DNA of 64,000 nt from assembly GCA_902518955.1 (NCBI GenBank), contig CABYIR010000003.1, positions 1 to 64,000 of the forward strand, written 5' to 3'. Under the pieces are notes generated by a model that made no database searches, was not told the origin of the DNA, and was given only the letters and a program-made list of their open reading frames with translations. Made by a program: the position numbers and the translations under genes. The stretch comes from an uncultured Pelagibacteraceae bacterium (GTDB lineage: Bacteria; Pseudomonadota; Alphaproteobacteria; Pelagibacterales; AG-422-B15). Each line of letters begins with the position of its first letter. The stretch's first letter is position 1. Shown here piece by piece: positions 31,424 to 41,253 of this stretch.

Positions 31424-32460
31424 TTAAAATTTATATTCTAGTGATAACGATAAGGAGTATGAAGAGTATTTATCTGAGGACTTCTCTGCAGAAATTGCTA
31501 CATCTGAACTAAGAGTGTTATCAGTATTTGTGCTTGTCAGCATGGAGTTTAATCTGAGGGTTGCCCTTCCCTTGAAATCAAAGCTTGGATCAAGCCTGCT
31601 GACATACACTTTATCAGGATTAGCTAGATAATTTACAAAAACATTTGATCTTCTTGTTAGATTTTCTTCAAACGATAAATCAAAGACCGGAACAAGAGAT
31701 AGTTTATAAACTTTTTTATCTAAATTAATCTCGTTCATGCTTCTTATATCTGTTCCAAAGACAAATGACGATGTACTCACTGCTTGTGCATCCACATGCA
31801 AAGCCTCAACTCCTGGACTTTCATCATAAGCGCCCAATTCAATCTGACCAAAACTAAATCGACCATACGGATTAAAACTAAGATTATTGTAATTAATGAT
31901 CTTATTAAATCCTAACGAAGTATTATAATAATGGCCCGTACGATAGAATGTGTGAGTAGTCGAAGTTCCATTTGCAAATCGTGAGCCATCTATTTCAATG
32001 TCTCCATAAGTAAGAATTAAATCAACGTACTCATTATTATCAAGAGCTATATTGTGATAGCTTGAAACTGATAACGAGTCTGAATAAACTTTACTTCTTT
32101 CAAACTGAACTGTGTTTTCTCCTCTAGATTCATGAATACCAAACCCTAACAAATAATCGTTAGAAATTTGTCTATCAAATCCAAAAGATAAGTCTTTTAT
32201 TTTTGTCTTACTACCTAATTTTGTTCCTTCTGTCTCTACATCACCATAACTAACTGTTCCTGATGTCCAAATACTCCATTGAAGAATAGGATCGTATGCA
32301 AAGTTTACTTTGCTCCCAAAGATATCTACAAATTTTAAAAGATCTTCATTAGATCCATTGTAACTAAGTTTTATTCCCTGATGAGATCGATTTCCACTGT
32401 TTCTTATAAATGAGAGACGTCCAAGAACTGTATCTCTTGTCTGTATCATTGCTACCTCTG
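31424..32460 (-). other. Autotransporter-type beta-barrel domain
   Basis: C-terminal ~340 aa from [17 protein letters not shown] to SLEYKF; alternating amphipathic strands; boundary approximate. Confidence 0.75.
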
Positions 32461-35400
32461 TTGGTCCAGCTTGCTCTTTCAACACAGACTCGCTTTCGGC
32501 ATCTTCAAATGGTGAGGCTAAGTACAACCAATCAAAAATAGCTTCTTCATTAATGTTGCCTACTGCGTCAGTAAACTTCCCACTCTCAACTTTAATTTGT
32601 TTTTGACCATTGCCACTTGGAGTAAATGTTGCTGTGTAACTTGTTCCACTGCCACTAAAACTTGAAATTGTTCCACCAGTAGTGACAATATCATCAACAG
32701 TGAAATCTGTCGCAGTTTCACTTAGAGTAAATGTTAAAGATAAAGAAGTGTCGTCTGATACTGATGAGTTATTAACTTCTGAAGACGTAATAGACACAGA
32801 TGGACGAGTTCCGTCATAAGTCCAAACAAACCGTGTTGCTGCCGTACTGAAATTACCACTTGAGTCTGTAAAGACTCCTGCCTCAACATCGATATAAACA
32901 TAACCATCGGCATTTGGTGTTACTGTTACTGTATATGAAGTACCACTTCCACTAAAATTAGATAACGTTCCACCATCAATTTTTATATCATTTATAGTGA
33001 AATTAGATGTTGTTTCACTTGTAGAGAAGGCAACGGAAATTGTTGTGTCATTTGATGCCGAGCCACTTGATACAGTGGATGATGATATTGTGATCGATGG
33101 ACTAGTACTGTCATATGTCCAATTAAATTGTGATGCGGCAGCACTATTGTTTCCAGCTATATCAGTGAATGAACCAGCGTTTACATCTATTGTTGTTGCG
33201 CCATCTCCTGATGGCTTAAATCGTGCGGAATAAGTTGTTCCAGAACCAATAAAGCTGGATAGAGTTCCTCCGCTTAGACTGATATCACCCGCTACAAAGT
33301 TTGTGGAGGATTCTGAAAGAGTAAATGTCAATACAATTGAAACATCGTTGCTTGTATCACCATCATTTACTGTTGAAGATGTAATCGTTATCGTTGGAGC
33401 AACGGAGTCATATGTCCAGTTGAATTGAGATGCTGCAATATTATTGTTCGCACCATCAGTAAACGTACCTGCGCTTACATCAACTGTTGTTGCACCATTA
33501 CTGGATGGAGTCAAGGTGGCTGTATATGATGCGCCACTACCACTAAAGTTTGAAATTGTTCCTCCACTTACTGTTATATCTCCCTCAGCAAAATTACTTA
33601 CTGACTCAGAGATAGAAAATACCAGTCCGATAGAGCTATCATTAGTCACTGATCCATCTGTTACTCCACTAGTTGATGACGAAATCGCAATTAGTGGGGC
33701 GGTTCCATCATAAGACCATGTAAACGTGTTTGATACAGTATTATTGAATCCTGCTGCGTCTGTAAATTTATTAGCAGCAACTGTAACTGATGTCTGAGAA
33801 GATGAAATTGCAGTTAATATCGCTGAATAATTTGCCCCACTGCCTGTAAAGTTTGATACTTGTGCATTTGCTATTGTTAAGTCATCAAGTCCAAAATCAG
33901 TGGAAGACTCACTTAGTGTAAATGTTAAATTGATCGATGTATCAGTAGTTGTTGATCCACTTGAAACTGTTGATGAACTAATTGTTATTGATGGAGGCGT
34001 TGTGTCGTACAACCAATTAAATTGATTTGCCTCAGTGTTATTATTGCCAGCTTCATCAGTGAATGCTCCTGCATTGACATCAATGGAAGTGGCTCCTTGT
34101 CCAGAAGGTGTGAATGTTGCTGAATAAGATGTTCCACTTCCACTAAAGTTTGATATTGACCCTCCACTAACAGTGATGTCACTAGATACAAAGTTTGTTG
34201 TGATTTCAGAAGTAGTAAATGTCAAAGCAATAGAACTGTCCTGTGAAGCATCACCATCACTCACAGTTGAGGACTCAATAATTACTGAGGGTGCAACTTT
34301 ATCAGATATGAAGTAAACATACCCAATACCCTCCCAAAGTGTACCTGTGTTCGTGAATGAATAGGCTGAAGCATTATTGCCTGCTAAATCAGTTCCAAAT
34401 TGATAACTGTAAGCATTTACATATTCGTCATTGGATGATGTATTGGTTGGAGTAAGTGTATAACTGTAAGTTGTTCCACTTCCAGAAAAATTTGAAACAT
34501 CAGCATTCATAGTATCAATATCACTTATCTCAGCATCTATAATTTCTTCACCAAATACTAACTCTACATTGATAGAAGATGCATTTGATCTTCGTATACC
34601 AATATCGTTTTGATAATCTGCCCGATAAAACGTATTTGGCGTTGATGTTGCTGATTGAACTTCAGGTTGAGTTCGATCACTAGTGTAATTAAATTCAAGT
34701 GTGGCAAAGTTAGTGTTTCCAACTGAGTCGGTAAATAAATCTTCTGCAACACTAATTGCTTTTACCCCATCGCGTAAATTGCTATGGCTTTCAGCCGACG
34801 GGTGAAAACGTGCTGTATACGTGTCTCCACTTCCAGAAAAATGTGATATTGATCCGTTTGCAGTGACAGATATATCATTCGCCGTAAAACCAACAATATC
34901 TTCTGTTGCTTTAAAGGTAAGATTGATCCATCTACTATTTGTAATACCTCCATCTTCTAAATCAGCTAATGTACCTCTTCGAGGGCCTCCATACCACCAC
35001 CCGTATACATAGCGTTGTGCTGTTATTGTCATGATTGGCTTTTCACCATCATAAGTCCAATTAAACTGAGTTGCAGCCGCTGAATTAGAATTGCCAGCAC
35101 TATCAGTAAACTTACTAGTTCCGATATCAATTGTCGTATCAATAAGTAGAACTGTTGGTGTAAAGTTTGCTGTGTACGTAGTTCCGCTTCCAGTAAAATC
35201 TGAAATAACACCTCCGCTAACTGTTAAATCATCCTGTACAAAATCTGAAACGCTTTCACTGAATGTGAACGTCAACGCGATATAACCATCATTTGATGCC
35301 ACTCCATCACTAACTGTCGATGAATTAATTGCAACCGTTGGTGCTTTTGTATCGATTACATAATTTGATGAAGAATAAGTCGAAGTCATTGCATTACCGT

Positions 35401-37435
35401 CACTGTCCGTAAAAGATGTATCAATGACTAAAGCATTAGAAGAAGCTTCAGTGTCAGAAGTTGGAGTAAATGTTCCTGTCCAAGTGATATTGTTACTCGT
35501 TGAAAGTGTTGAAAGTGATCCATTTGGCATTGAAACATCAGCATTAGCAAAGCCAGTTACTGATTCTGAAAAAACAATTGTAACTGAAGACGTTTCTCCA
35601 ATTTTCATCGCCGCATCACCAAATGATACTGAAGACACAGTGGGTCGAATTGTAGTTACAGAATAATTAGCGGTTGTTGATGATGAGGATGGAGCGTTGC
35701 CCGCAGTATCGGTATATGAAGTTGCTAATGTTAAAATATTTGATGTATCATCCGTACTTGATGTAGGCGTAAATATTCCTGTCCAAGTAATGTTATCACT
35801 TGATGACATTGTTGTAAGCGATCCATTTTGAACAGTGATATCATCACCACTACTAAAACTACTAACCGCTTCAGAAAAAACAAGAGTCACTGTCGTGGTT
35901 TCACCTGCATCCAAATCAGTATCCGCAAGAACAAAACTGCTTACAGAAGGTCTTATAGTTTCTACAGAATAATTTTCAGTAGTTGCAGAAGGCCCTGTAT
36001 TGCCACCTAAGTCTGTATAGGTTGTTGCCAAAGATAATATGTTTGATGAATCTTCAACACTTGATGAGGGTGTTAATGTTCCAGTCCAAGTAATGTTATC
36101 ACTAGTTGACATTGTTGTAAGAGATCCATTTTGAACAGTGATATCATCACCACTACTAAATCCTATAACCGCCTCAGAAAATACCAATGTTACAGTGGCT
36201 GTATCTCCTACTTTTAATACTGTATCTGATAATGTAAAACTTGATACAGTGACTGCTGTATTATCATATGTCCAATTAAATTGAGAAGCAGCAGAATTAT
36301 TATTTCCAGCATTATCTGTAAACTTACTTGCTTCTACATCTATTGTTGTTGAGCCTTCGCCAGAAGGTGTAAACGTCGCGGTGTAAACTGTAGAGCTTGA
36401 TGCTGAAAAATTTGATAAAGACCCGCCTGATACACTGATGTCGCCAACAGCAAAATTACTTGTAGCTTCACTTGAAGTAAATGTTAAAGCAATTGAGCTA
36501 TCGTTTGACGTGTCACCATCTGAAACCGTTGATGATGTAATCGCCATTGTTGGAGAAGTACTGTCATACGTCCAATTAAATTGGGATGCAGCAGTATTGC
36601 CATTTGAGGCTCCGTCTGTAAACACTCCTGCATTAACGTCAACCGTTGTAGTTCCATCACTACTTGGCGTAAAAGTTGCGGTATAAACTGTAGAGCTTGA
36701 TGCTGAAAAATTTGATAAAGACCCGCCTGATACACTGATGTCGCCAACAGCAAAATTACTTGTAGCTTCACTTGAAGTAAATGTTAAAGCAATTGAGCTA
36801 TCGTTTGACGTGTCACCATCTGACACTGTTGATGATGTAATAGCCATTGTTGGACTTGTTACATCGCCATCAAATCTTGAGGCAGGAACAATTGAGTAGG
36901 ATGTCCCTCCAGATGTATCTTCATAAAGTTTTAATACTGCGCCACCACCATTCTCATAATAATACACAGTTATTGAGTAAGCTTGGCCCCCAACTCCAGT
37001 CCATAATCCTGAGACATTATAATTTGATGGTCCTTGATCATGCCAATCGTCTAAAACAGTGGTTCCATCTATAATGACTTTAATTCCATCATCTACTCTT
37101 GCAGCAAATCTAATAGATGAAGAAACACCTGAGTCACCAGGGTGTGCATAAGTACCAGTAAATTTTACAATAACATCGTCTGATCGCCCTGAATCTAAAA
37201 CTTGTCCATTCCCCCAATCGTAATTCAAATCAGAAACAGTCCCAGATGATTGGACAGATGTATTATCTGGTGGATTAAAGTTAGGAGAGCCACCTCCTGA
37301 AGCACTTATAAAAGACTCATATGCTAGGTCCGCATATACGCTACTAGTTGAAATAAATATAAATAAAAAGACTAAAAATTTCTGCACAGCCAACATAAAG
37401 GCGAACATAACACTCAATGAAGTATTTTTATACAT
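31424..37435 (-). CDS. Giant secreted/surface protein: signal peptide + PA14-like domain + about 14 Ig-like repeats + C-terminal autotransporter beta-barrel
   Basis: 2003 aa. N-terminal hydrophobic signal; [23 protein letters not shown]...[33 protein letters not shown]14-like; repeated [36 protein letters not shown]...NWTYD modules; C-terminal alternating strands ending [10 protein letters not shown] (terminal Phe). Confidence 0.85.
36384..36523 (-). repeat. Exact 140-bp repeat copy A in the autotransporter gene (partner 36684..36823, offset exactly 300 bp)
   Basis: Direct comparison of the + strand: taaactgtagagcttgatgctgaaaaatttgataaag...cgtttgacgtgtcaccatctga is identical at both positions. 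Confidence 0.95.
36684..36823 (-). repeat. Exact 140-bp repeat copy B (partner 36384..36523)
   Basis: Same string as copy A; mismatches at both flanks (36383/36683 and 36524/36824). Confidence 0.95.
36866..37327 (-). other. PA14-like N-terminal domain of the giant autotransporter
   Basis: aa 37-190: [30 protein letters not shown]...[21 protein letters not shown] matches PA14/GLEYA-type core patterns by eye. Confidence 0.65.
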
Positions 37436-37507
37436 AGTAATTAGTACTAATTACTATTTAAAGTAATCTCTTTTTTACATTTTTTATGAGAAGTCTTAAA
37501 GAATTTA

Positions 37508-37879
37508 CTAATACTTTTTTTTCAAAGGTAGTTGTGAATTTAACCATCCTTTATTACCTTCAAATCCATCAACAACATTAATGCATTTATAATCCTCATG
37601 ACTCAACATATCGGATGCCAAGGCGGATCGAACACCAGATTTACAAATAAATGCTATTTCAAACTCCTTTTCAATATTAAGACTAAGAATATCATTTACA
37701 AAATTACCATTTAAGGATCCTTCATTGTTTTTTATTGATACAAAATATGTCTTAAGACCAATTTGATCACCGTCTGGTTTGCCGACTGTCTCCCACTCTC
37801 GTTCAGTTCGAACATCAATTAAGATACATCTGCTATTATTACTATACTCAATTAGTTCATTTGGTGTCATCTCTTTCAT
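37508..37879 (-). CDS. Rhodanese-like domain protein
   Basis: CILIDVRTEREWETVGKPDG and catalytic-loop FICKSGVRSALASDML...VVDGFEGNKGW. Confidence 0.88.
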   Translation of the reverse strand: MKEMTPNELIEYSNNSRCILIDVRTEREWETVGKPDGDQIGLKTYFVSIKNNEGSLNGNFVNDILSLNIEKEFEIAFICKSGVRSALASDMLSHEDYKCINVVDGFEGNKGWLNSQLPLKKKY

Positions 37880-38532
37880 TATATTTTCCTCATTGTTGCT
37901 CTATAAAGTCGTCTAGGGAAACTTCCTTCTTCAAAAGTACTCATATCGAGTAATTCAAAGCCTCTCAACAATTTTTTAATTCTTTCCTTGGAAAAGAAAT
38001 GAACAATAAATCCATTGCTTTCATATAAATCTTCTCCTCGATGGATTCCATTTTGATAGTCTCCATCTTCTATATTTCTAACAGTAAATACATTTAACCC
38101 ACCCTGTTTAAGAACTCTATGAACTTCATTATTTAAATTCTCTATTTCTTCAAAAGTGAGAGCCATACAATATAACATATGGGAATAGCACCCATCGATG
38201 CTATTATCTTCGAAAGGAAGTCTTTCTCTAACATCGCAAAGCTGAGCGTTTACTCTATTTAGTAATTCAAACTCAGACACTTTTTCGCTAATTTTATTTA
38301 TACCTGAGGGACTATAATCTAATGCATGAACATAGATATCGTTTTTTGCAAATAAAAATGAGTCTCTTCCCTGGCCGGCGCCAAGTTCAATCATATTTTT
38401 TACATTATTTTTTTTAAAAATTTCTAGAGTATAGCTAGCGGGGTCGCTTGAACTTATACCAAACATCTCAGGCTTATTTGAGAAATTATTTTCCCAATGC
38501 TGAGATTGTTTGTTTAAAAGATCCTTGTCCAA
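37879..38532 (-). CDS. Class I SAM-dependent methyltransferase (TehB-like)
   Basis: MIELGAGQGRDSFLFAKNDIYVHALDYS motif I and SHMLYCMALTFEEIENLNNEVHRVLKQGGLNVFTVRN. Confidence 0.82.
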   Translation of the reverse strand: MDKDLLNKQSQHWENNFSNKPEMFGISSSDPASYTLEIFKKNNVKNMIELGAGQGRDSFLFAKNDIYVHALDYSPSGINKISEKVSEFELLNRVNAQLCDVRERLPFEDNSIDGCYSHMLYCMALTFEEIENLNNEVHRVLKQGGLNVFTVRNIEDGDYQNGIHRGEDLYESNGFIVHFFSKERIKKLLRGFELLDMSTFEEGSFPRRLYRATMRKI

Positions 38533-38533
38533 A

Positions 38534-39193
38534 TTATTTTGATGGATCAGGAACTTTTCTTAAATAAGGCTTTACTGTTTCCCATCCATCAGGATAGATT
38601 TCTTTTGCCTGTTCGTCTTTAACAGCTGGAAGAATTACGACATCCTCACCTTTTTGCCAGTTTGCAGGTGTAGCAACTTTATGATTTGCTGTCAGTTGCA
38701 TTGAGTCAATAGCTCTCAAGATTTCATTAAAATTTCGTCCTGTTGCCATTGGATAAGTTAAAAATAATCCAATTCTTTTATCAGGTCTAATAACGAATAC
38801 CGTTCTCACTGTCTCATTATCAACTGCGGTACGACCCATTGAAGATTCTCCTGCATCTCCTTCAAGCATATTGAATAATTTTGCAATTTTTAAATCTTCA
38901 TCAGCTATGATTGGATAGTTCGGCTTAATACCAGCAACATCTTCGATATCGTTTAGCCAATTTTTATGGTCTTCAACTCCATCAACACTTAAACCAATAA
39001 CTTTCACATTTCTTGCATCAAAATCTCTTTTCATGTGAGCTAATGAGCCAAGTTCAGTTGTACAAACAGGTGTGAAATCTTTTGGATGAGAAAATAATAC
39101 ACCCCAACTGTCTCCAAGCCATTCGTGAAACGATATGTCGCCTTCTGATGTTTTAGCTTCAAAGTCAGGGCACATACTATTTATTTTTAACAT
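38534..39193 (-). CDS. Prx6-type (1-Cys) peroxiredoxin
   Basis: LFSHPKDFTPVCTTELGSLA, PIIADEDLKIAKLFNMLE, RTVFVIRPDKRIGLFLTYPMATGRNFNEILRAIDSMQLT. Confidence 0.93.
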   Translation of the reverse strand: MLKINSMCPDFEAKTSEGDISFHEWLGDSWGVLFSHPKDFTPVCTTELGSLAHMKRDFDARNVKVIGLSVDGVEDHKNWLNDIEDVAGIKPNYPIIADEDLKIAKLFNMLEGDAGESSMGRTAVDNETVRTVFVIRPDKRIGLFLTYPMATGRNFNEILRAIDSMQLTANHKVATPANWQKGEDVVILPAVKDEQAKEIYPDGWETVKPYLRKVPDPSK

Positions 39194-39396
39194 ATTCTAA
39201 CTCCTCTTATTGTTTAGAATTATTGTAATCTACAAGTTTATATTTTAAAAGTATTCAAGTTCAATATCAGGAATTAAAATCAAGTATTTTTTGGTTATTT
39301 TCATGGAATATTATACTTAAATATTCAGAGTATCCATTTAAGTCTTAAAAATTGAAAAATTGTTTTAATTTATCGAATATTAAGTAGTCTTTAGTA

Positions 39397-40092
39397 ATGA
39401 TTTTTGAACAATTATTTGACGATAAATCATCTACATATACCTACATCATTTCAAGTGGCAAAGGACGGGAAGCATTAATTATCGATCCAGTAATAGAACA
39501 TTCAGATTATTATATTAAAATTTTAGATAAATTAGAATTAAGTCTCGTGAAGGTAATTGATACACATATCCATGCTGATCATATAACAGCATTAAATGAA
39601 CTAAGTAAAAGAACAGGTTGCGCTAAAGTGATGGGAGAAAATTCAAAATCTGAAGTTATTGATTTTAAAGTTAAAGATGAGGAAACAGTTAATATTGAAA
39701 ATATTGAATTAAAGGCAATTTACACACCTGGCCATACCGATGACTCATATTGCTTTATTATGAAAGATAGAATATTCACAGGTGATACTCTTTTAATTAA
39801 CGGGACAGGTCGAACAGATTTTCAAAATGGCAGTCCTCATGATGCATATCATTCGTTATTCGATCGTGTTCTAAGCCTGCCAGATGAAACAATCGTATAT
39901 CCTGCTCATGATTATAATCAAAAACGATCATCAACAATTGGTGATGAAAAGAAGAATAACCCGAGACTTCAAGTAAATAACGCAGATGAATATGCCGAGA
40001 TCATGAATAATTTAAATTTAGCAAATCCTAAAATGATGGACATTGCGGTTCCAGCAAATTTAAAAGGTGTCACCTTGAAAGAATTGGATTAA
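39397..40092 (+). CDS. MBL-fold protein, ETHE1/persulfide dioxygenase-like
   Basis: IDTHIHADHITALNEL, YTPGHTDDSYCFIMKDRIFTGDTLLINGTGRTDFQNGSPHDAYHSLFDRVLSLPDETIVYPAHDYN; GRTDFQ and THxHADH are typical of this family. Confidence 0.85.
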   Translation: MIFEQLFDDKSSTYTYIISSGKGREALIIDPVIEHSDYYIKILDKLELSLVKVIDTHIHADHITALNELSKRTGCAKVMGENSKSEVIDFKVKDEETVNIENIELKAIYTPGHTDDSYCFIMKDRIFTGDTLLINGTGRTDFQNGSPHDAYHSLFDRVLSLPDETIVYPAHDYNQKRSSTIGDEKKNNPRLQVNNADEYAEIMNNLNLANPKMMDIAVPANLKGVTLKELD

Positions 40093-40098
40093 AATACC

Positions 40099-40722
40099 CT
40101 AATCTCTTTGAATAGAATTATCATACAATTTAATAACTTTCAGATAATAAACGACATAGACCATCGAAACCAATGGATATATCAGAACTGGTCCCATTAA
40201 ATAAATATAAATGCCAATACTTGGTATAAATGCAAATACTTCAAACATAATGTATATCAAATGAGTCAAGCCAAGAATTCCTGCTGTTTTCCACCAGCCA
40301 GCAGAATGAATAAGAGATCTCGATCTTGAAAACGCTTCTCTCACATTCATATTTTGATCAATAATTAAATAAAATATAAACGACCATACAATGATTAAAT
40401 ATATGCCAGGAAGTAAAAATATTATGAGTCCCATTACAATTGCTAAACAACTGATAATAGACGCAAACAATAAAGGGCCAAAATTTTGGAATCCTTTAGC
40501 GTAAATAGATCCGAACTTTGGGTGCTTGCCTTTGGCGATTTGAATTAAGAAATGATAATACCCCCCAAGAAGAGCTGGTAAGGCAAGGATACCAACAACT
40601 GTAATACCTAGAAGAATTGAACTTACAATATAAAGAAGAGTATTGACTAAGATCAGAAAATAATTTTTAGCACCCAGTTTGAAACCCTCATAAAAGGTTT
40701 CTATAATTGAGATATTTGTCAT
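40099..40722 (-). CDS. Multi-TM membrane protein of unknown function
   Basis: 207 aa, several hydrophobic helices; intact ORF. Confidence 0.7.
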   Translation of the reverse strand: MTNISIIETFYEGFKLGAKNYFLILVNTLLYIVSSILLGITVVGILALPALLGGYYHFLIQIAKGKHPKFGSIYAKGFQNFGPLLFASIISCLAIVMGLIIFLLPGIYLIIVWSFIFYLIIDQNMNVREAFSRSRSLIHSAGWWKTAGILGLTHLIYIMFEVFAFIPSIGIYIYLMGPVLIYPLVSMVYVVYYLKVIKLYDNSIQRD

Positions 40723-40727
40723 TCGAT

Positions 40728-41144
40728 TTAAATATAGATTTTATTGGATAGCCCCAATATAAGTACTATTGATGATATAAGTGTAAATGTATTAATTCCA
40801 AGATCAGTAATTGAATTCTTCGCAGTTATATTTTTATCAATCTTTTTAAAATAAAATAGAAGATCATAAATAAAAAGAAAGAGTCCAAGAAGAAATATTA
40901 AATTATAATAGATAAATCCACCTTCTGGTCCATTTGGTCGAAAAACCATGTAAATACCAATTAAGAAAAATGAAGCTATAAAAGTCCCAAAACATCGAAT
41001 AATATAGATGCTGCTTTCATCCATATTAAATTCCTTAGCCATTCCATGAGGTGCCAAAAGAGCTCTATAAGAAAAAACACCAAATAAGCCAGTTACGAGT
41101 AAATGTAGGACAAGAAGATAGATATTGTTAAAATTTTCAATCAT
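40728..41144 (-). CDS. Small multi-TM membrane protein of unknown function
   Basis: 138 aa with four predicted hydrophobic segments. Confidence 0.65.
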   Translation of the reverse strand: MIENFNNIYLLVLHLLVTGLFGVFSYRALLAPHGMAKEFNMDESSIYIIRCFGTFIASFFLIGIYMVFRPNGPEGGFIYYNLIFLLGLFLFIYDLLFYFKKIDKNITAKNSITDLGINTFTLISSIVLILGLSNKIYI

Positions 41145-41253
41145 TCTTAACTATAATTGAGTTATAAAAAAAAGACAAATCACTCATTGATTTACCGCAA
41201 AATAAGGCTAATTATTGTTTATGAACTTTTTCAAAAATTTATGGGGCTTGATA

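What the first reader, a model, noticed from the sequence alone, without database searches (positions are those of the whole stretch)
31424..37435. 2003-aa PA14/Ig-repeat autotransporter in an otherwise compact genome
A single ORF encodes signal peptide, PA14-like domain (often carbohydrate-binding), about 14 Ig-like modules of ~100 aa and a C-terminal barrel ending in Phe. At 6 kb it is the largest gene in the window and unusual for a streamlined planktonic cell. It could mediate surface attachment, phage interaction or particle binding. I could not identify a described system with this exact architecture.
Basis: partly seen in the sequence, partly recalled or inferred. Interest (0 to 1): 0.65.

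Follow-up and report, generated by a model that had tools for sequence, protein, structure and literature searches.

The report
PA14-tipped autotransporter adhesin in SAR11-like plankton
A tiny-genome ocean bacterium related to SAR11 carries one giant surface protein, built as a sugar-binding-type head on a long stalk of 14 repeats anchored in the outer membrane, which probably lets the cell stick to sugars on other cells or particles; each part is known, but this combination was found only in its own genus.

Summary
Window 31424-37435 (-) is one intact 2003-aa ORF: signal peptide, PA14 domain, 14 Big_12 Ig-like modules, linker helix and a C-terminal PF03797 beta-barrel ending in Phe. The Ca/sugar-site Asp-Asp pair is present (D115-D116). 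A sister single-cell genome has the gene at the same place with 15 modules, 94% identical; other genera of the family have the site without it, so it is real and accessory. Best reading: a type Va fibrillar adhesin whose lectin-like PA14 ends up at the tip of an Ig stalk. Function is inferred. It works like PA14-bearing RTX adhesins with a different anchor. Large autotransporter adhesins are already published for coastal SAR11 (PMC12636525), so the kind is known; PA14 on this stalk and anchor was seen only in this genus in the genomes sampled. A SAR11-order relative carries PA14 in a two-partner-secretion exoprotein. New variant of a known kind.

The parts
31424..37435 (-). 2003-aa PA14 / Ig-repeat autotransporter gene
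   Evidence: single open ORF; ortholog 94% identical in sister genome G002
37331..37435 (-). signal peptide, aa 1-35 (VYA|D); exact start codon uncertain
   Evidence: read from sequence; first ~9 aa not conserved in G002
36866..37330 (-). PA14 domain, aa 36-190
   Evidence: Pfam PF07691, PDB phmmer 6qe7 2e-13, 6m8m 2e-6, AF2 pLDDT 86.6, Foldseek MpPA14 TM 0.77-0.81
37088..37093 (-). D115-D116, the consecutive-Asp pair that in PA14 lectins forms the cis-peptide Ca/sugar site
   Evidence: alignment A1, pattern match; role from PMC8092209 and PMC6650083
36947..36955 (-). E161-N162-G163, the loop aligned with Asp181-Gln182-Gly183 of MhPA14 (Ca1/sugar loop)
   Evidence: phmmer alignment to 6m8m, positions, ligand list from PMC6650083
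32534..36865 (-). stalk of 14 Big_12 Ig-like modules, aa 191-1634, ~100 aa each, most with a DxxxP-type junction
   Evidence: Pfam Big_12 x14; module boundaries
32396..32470 (-). linker helix, aa 1656-1680, leading into the barrel
   Evidence: AF2 model residues 31-55
31427..32275 (-). autotransporter beta-barrel, aa ~1721-2003, terminal Phe
   Evidence: PF03797 75 bits, AF2, Foldseek AaaA/EstA/NalP/EspP
31424..41214 (.). accessory block (autotransporter, rhodanese, methyltransferase, peroxiredoxin, MBL hydrolase, two membrane proteins) absent between the GST and flavodoxin-like genes in the sister genus g3 (the second membrane protein, 40728-41144, has a homolog a few genes further on in some of them)
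   Evidence: synteny over 22 loci; domain names

Best explanation
It is a classical (type Va) autotransporter that works as a fibrillar adhesin. After Sec export the C-terminal ~12-strand barrel is inserted in the outer membrane and the passenger is threaded out C-terminus first. The 14 Ig-like modules fold into a rod some tens of nanometres long, and the N-terminal PA14 domain sits at the far tip, where its Asp-Asp Ca2+ site can grip vicinal hydroxyls of sugars on other cells, algae or particles. Shown: domain order, PA14 fold, barrel type, the Asp-Asp motif, conservation under strong purifying selection, module-number variation and accessory distribution. Inferred: export route, orientation, Ca2+ and sugar binding, rod length, attachment.
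For: Domains. Folds: PA14 model against MpPA14/MhPA14; barrel against AaaA, EstA, NalP, EspP, with a sequence-profile match to EstA at 3e-8. D115-D116 and the ENGG loop align with the Ca1/sugar ligands of MhPA14. No Cys in the protein, common in autotransporter passengers. Sister genome: same gene, same place, 15 modules, PA14 98% identical with dN/dS about 0.05. The same plan (adhesive domain, stalk repeats, PF03797 anchor) is a recognised class of fibrillar adhesins (PMC8286594). The PA14 lectin of the Ig-stalked RTX adhesin MpAFP binds diatoms (PMC8092209).
Against: PA14 domains are not all lectins, and the second-loop residues are only partly conserved (Asp to Glu, Gln to Asn). No Omp85/BamA gene was found in the 79%-complete assembly, so the insertion machinery was not seen here. 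No expression, surface localisation or binding data exist. Whether the passenger is kept or cleaved was not tested.
Confidence: 0.72

Rival explanations
1. Same surface protein, but its main role is capture of polysaccharide or nutrient, or release of the passenger, rather than cell attachment.
For: The closest PDB sequence matches to the PA14 are the anti-sigma factor domains 6qe7/6qdi, which by family knowledge sense polysaccharide. PMC12636525 also speculates about nutrient or carbon uptake for SAR11 autotransporters.
Against: No neighbouring transporter or glycoside hydrolase; the neighbours are GST, rhodanese, methyltransferase and peroxiredoxin. A 14-module stalk suits reach rather than uptake.
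Confidence: 0.12
2. A variable surface antigen or phage-defence decoy: the value of the gene lies in variation at the cell surface, not in a specific ligand.
For: Patchy presence, module gain, within-gene homogenisation of modules 1-2, and a sharp rise in synonymous divergence at the barrel (Ks 0.61) next to GST (Ks 0.17), implying recombination. SAR11 hypervariable regions carry tandem autotransporters (PMC2217521).
Against: The PA14 tip is among the most conserved parts (98% aa identity), opposite to what immune or phage-driven diversification of an exposed tip predicts.
Confidence: 0.1
3. PA14 is only a structural cap and does not bind sugar.
For: Non-lectin PA14 domains exist; the anthrax protective antigen PA14 region also matches the profile.
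Against: The Asp-Asp pair is kept, and apart from the anti-sigma factor domains the nearest folds are the sugar-binding adhesin PA14 domains.
Confidence: 0.06

Closest known systems
Autotransporter adhesin of coastal SAR11 Pelagibacteraceae (PMC12636525)
   Same: One very large (5-9.5 kb) autotransporter gene with a repetitive passenger in a streamlined SAR11-type genome; accessory distribution.
   Different: The published genes lie next to type IV pilus / type II secretion genes; this one lies between GST and rhodanese genes next to the nuo operon. A PA14 domain is not mentioned in that paper's main text. Direct sequence comparison was not possible because supplements could not be read.
PA14-bearing RTX adhesins (MpAFP/MpIBP of Marinomonas, MhLap of Marinobacter)
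   Same: PA14 lectin-type domain with an Asp-Asp Ca site on a long stalk of beta-sandwich (Ig-like) repeats; marine; outer-membrane displayed.
   Different: Those use type I secretion with C-terminal RTX repeats and an N-terminal retention plug; here export and anchoring are by a C-terminal autotransporter barrel and no RTX repeats were found.
Fibrillar adhesin class with PF03797 anchor (Monzon et al. 2021, PMC8286594)
   Same: Adhesive domain, stalk repeats and anchor; PA14 treated as an adhesive domain; PF03797 among the main Proteobacteria anchors.
   Different: Big_12 with PA14 plus PF03797 is not described in the passages read.
AaaA and EstA of Pseudomonas (solved autotransporters)
   Same: Barrel fold and overall barrel-plus-linker topology.
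   Different: Their passengers are an aminopeptidase and an esterase (family knowledge), not an Ig stalk with PA14.

Membership tests
Classical monomeric autotransporter (type Va) | C-terminal ~12-strand barrel of the PF03797 type | tested here: met
   75 bits against cut-off 26; AF2 and Foldseek
Classical monomeric autotransporter (type Va) | alpha-helical linker running into the barrel | tested here: met
   helix at model residues 31-55 before the first barrel strand
Classical monomeric autotransporter (type Va) | N-terminal Sec signal peptide | tested here: met
   hydrophobic run and VYA|D site read directly from the sequence; no predictor was run
Classical monomeric autotransporter (type Va) | BAM-dependent surface display of the passenger | not testable with these tools
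   no Omp85 match in the 79%-complete own assembly; needs experiment
Fibrillar adhesin (adhesive domain + stalk + anchor) | adhesive domain, repeated stalk domains and a surface anchor on one protein | tested here: met
   PA14, Big_12 x14, PF03797; definition from PMC8286594
PA14 lectin | PA14 beta-sandwich fold | tested here: met
PA14 lectin | two consecutive Asp at the Ca1/sugar site | tested here: met
   D115-D116 aligned with the motif
PA14 lectin | second-loop ligands (Asp181/Gln182/Gly183 in MhPA14) | tested here: inconclusive
   E161/N162/G163: Gly kept, two conservative changes
PA14 lectin | Ca-dependent sugar binding | not testable with these tools
   needs protein
RTX adhesin | C-terminal RTX repeats / type I secretion signal | tested here: not met
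   C-terminus is an autotransporter barrel; no RTX (hemolysin-type Ca-binding) match in Pfam
Coastal SAR11 autotransporter adhesin (PMC12636525) | located next to type IV pilus / type II secretion genes | tested here: not met
   adjacent genes are GST and rhodanese, then SMP-30 / nuo and methyltransferase, peroxiredoxin, MBL hydrolase

The most novel reading that the evidence does not exclude
A sugar-binding tip (PA14) on a type Va autotransporter stalk in a SAR11-like streamlined cell: a dedicated, Ca2+-dependent lectin adhesin that lets some of these supposedly free-living cells hold on to phytoplankton or particles. PA14 would have been recruited at least twice in this order, also into a type Vb two-partner exoprotein (L142).
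Probability: 0.45. Interest if true: 0.55.

Novelty: new variant of a known kind. Interest (0 to 1): 0.36.

Why it matters
SAR11-type bacteria are treated as purely free-living; [quoted passage not shown] A recognisable lectin-type tip, with known Ca/sugar residues and a small soluble domain that can be expressed alone, makes the question 'do some of these cells attach, and to which glycan?' directly testable. It also suggests that the PA14-on-an-Ig-stalk design is not tied to type I secretion.

Tried and rejected
Assembly artefact or contamination: rejected, because the same gene lies at the same locus in an independent single-cell genome and the flanks match the family's synteny. Absence in G001 (same genus, 92% complete): cannot be read, since its contig ends inside the SMP-30 gene, just short of where the adhesin would be. 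Phage origin: no convincing PHROGs match and no relative of the PA14 in IMG/VR. RTX adhesin: rejected on the C-terminus. Inverse autotransporter: the barrel is C-terminal, so no; but a relative in G043 is of that type. Tandem Repeats Finder reported nothing at DNA level, although modules 1-2 are 85% identical in DNA with a long identical stretch; this does not contradict the Pfam repeats. The first nucleotide comparison of 'modules 1 and 2' compared the wrong pair and was redone.

Full report
WHAT IS THERE. The ORF at 31424-37435 on the minus strand is intact and 2003 aa long. Pfam gives 14 Big_12 Ig-like modules (712 bits) and a PA14 domain just over threshold. The barrel is not reported when the whole protein is scanned, but the last 408 aa alone match the autotransporter beta-domain PF03797 at 75 bits. 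The PA14 region alone matches solved PA14 domains, first the anti-sigma factor domains 6qe7/6qdi and then the RTX-adhesin sugar-binding domain 6m8m. A profile of 16 relatives also reaches the sugar complexes of the Marinomonas adhesin PA14.

STRUCTURE. AlphaFold2 on small alignments gave PA14 at pLDDT 86.6, pTM 0.85. Foldseek finds MpPA14 sugar complexes at TM 0.77-0.81 and yeast Epa/Flo lectins further down. The C-terminal 378 aa gave pLDDT 79, with a long helix followed by about 12-13 barrel strands; the top matches are the autotransporters AaaA, EstA, EspP and NalP.

BINDING SITE. PA14 lectins hold Ca2+ by two consecutive Asp in a cis peptide, and the Ca2+ holds vicinal sugar hydroxyls (PMC8092209; PMC6650083). 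The protein has D115-D116 at that column. In the second loop MhPA14 uses Asp181/Gln182/Gly183; the aligned residues here are E161/N162/G163. Most of the small PA14 proteins found in other Alphaproteobacteria have Asn-Asp instead of Asp-Asp. This favours, but does not prove, sugar binding.

RELATIVES AND DISTRIBUTION. The genome is 1.17 Mb in 42 contigs, 79% complete; depositors call the sister single-cell genome AG-912-N08 'uncultured Pelagibacteraceae'. SAR11-type order membership is inferred from that label. The sister genome G002 carries the ortholog at the same locus with 15 modules, 94% identical. A partial ortholog, 57% identical, fills a 3.2-kb contig of G014. Elsewhere in the family the barrel recurs at 24-33% identity with other stalks: a 1972-aa protein with nine Big_5 modules in G039 (same-sized, similar ones in G024, G048, G049), a Big_12 protein in G003, and an inverse-autotransporter barrel with Big_12 in G043. 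Barrels match in most of the 114 hits among 397 genomes of the order, but among the listed matches the PA14 part is covered only in this genus. A PA14 family search of the same 397 genomes finds the two genus members plus two others, G854 and (below the cut-off) G882, where the match sits inside a long exoprotein followed by a partner gene; in G854 these were confirmed as a two-partner-secretion TPS protein and its ShlB-type partner. In samples of 385 Alphaproteobacteria and 399 Pseudomonadota genomes, hits to the PA14 + two-module query fell on either the PA14 part or the Big_12 part; a few PA14 hits ran slightly into the module region (for example G554, G468), and the one of these scanned, G468, is a DUF6701 protein without Big_12. 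Big_12 with PF03797 but no PA14 occurs in G711 and G728. These are samples, so absence is not proof.

LOCUS. In genus g3 the order nuo - SMP-30 - GST - flavodoxin-like is unbroken in the spanning contigs examined (fifteen genomes; a sixteenth, G050, has SMP-30 directly followed by the flavodoxin-like gene at a contig end); in G000 and G002 an extra block starting with the adhesin lies between GST and the flavodoxin-like gene. So the gene is accessory. Synonymous divergence between the two carriers is 0.16-0.19 in nuo, SMP-30 and GST, 0.23 in PA14, and 0.61 in the barrel, whose gene ends 2 bp from GST; protein identity is 98% in PA14 and 89% in the barrel. The abrupt change suggests recombination within or around the gene. 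Modules 1 and 2 share a long identical DNA stretch, and the S/A difference (SNFSASS against SNFAASS) is shared by all first modules within each genome, which points to within-gene homogenisation. Module number could be under-counted in short-read assemblies.

MECHANISM. From established knowledge of type Va secretion: Sec export, barrel insertion, passenger exit C-terminus first, so the N-terminal PA14 becomes the distal tip. The Ig stalk with DxxxP-type junctions at most modules resembles the Ca-stiffened stalks of RTX adhesins; Ca2+ in these junctions is a guess. The whole works like a PA14 RTX adhesin with an autotransporter anchor. It is not an RTX adhesin, since the C-terminal feature was tested and not met.

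KNOWN OR NEW. The class (fibrillar adhesin with PF03797 anchor) is described (PMC8286594), and large autotransporter adhesins in SAR11 are described (PMC12636525; tandem autotransporters in HVR1 of HTCC1062, PMC2217521). The combination with a PA14 tip and the different genomic setting make this a new variant of a known kind. Interest is moderate: it is testable and biologically suggestive, not surprising in mechanism.

LIMITS. Taxonomy is by a depositor's label plus the kinship columns of the genome search. No Omp85 gene was found in the incomplete assembly. Metagenome collections could not be searched. The signal peptide was read by eye.

Noticed in passing
L142:6759-14361 (genome G854) and L143:4913-12659 (G882): In the sister family of the same order, a ~2000-aa two-partner-secretion exoprotein (TPS domain, PATR repeats) with its ShlB-type partner carries a PA14/GLEYA domain mid-protein in G854; G882 has what looks like the same gene pair with a weaker PA14 match: a second type V route displaying PA14 in SAR11-like cells.
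   Followed up: partly
window 31422/31424 boundary; 39397-40092: Synonymous divergence from the sister genome jumps from ~0.17 (nuo, SMP-30, GST) to 0.6 in the adhesin barrel and 0.88 in the MBL hydrolase, suggesting recombination or replacement of the accessory block.
   Followed up: partly
window 37508-40092 against L024:3951-6351: The block next to the adhesin holds a rhodanese, a methyltransferase and an MBL-fold hydrolase, possibly sulfide/persulfide handling; G002 has a FAD-dependent pyridine-nucleotide-disulphide-type oxidoreductase where this genome has a 1-Cys-type peroxiredoxin.
   Followed up: partly
L026:7670-13588, L027, L028, L029: 1972-aa autotransporters (nine Big_5 modules plus PF03797 in the scanned one, L026) of identical length at one conserved locus in four g3 genomes.
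   Followed up: no
L030:2141-3673 (G043): Inverse-autotransporter barrel (IAT_beta) followed by two Big_12 modules in a short 510-aa ORF: the same stalk module joined to the opposite anchor type.
   Followed up: no
G000 whole assembly: No Omp85 (BamA/TamA) match in the 79%-complete assembly although several control genomes ring; probably a missing contig, but not checked in relatives.
   Followed up: no
L034 (G001:C5, end at 39519): The contig of the third genus member ends inside the SMP-30 gene, just before the adhesin position, so presence there cannot be judged.
   Followed up: yes
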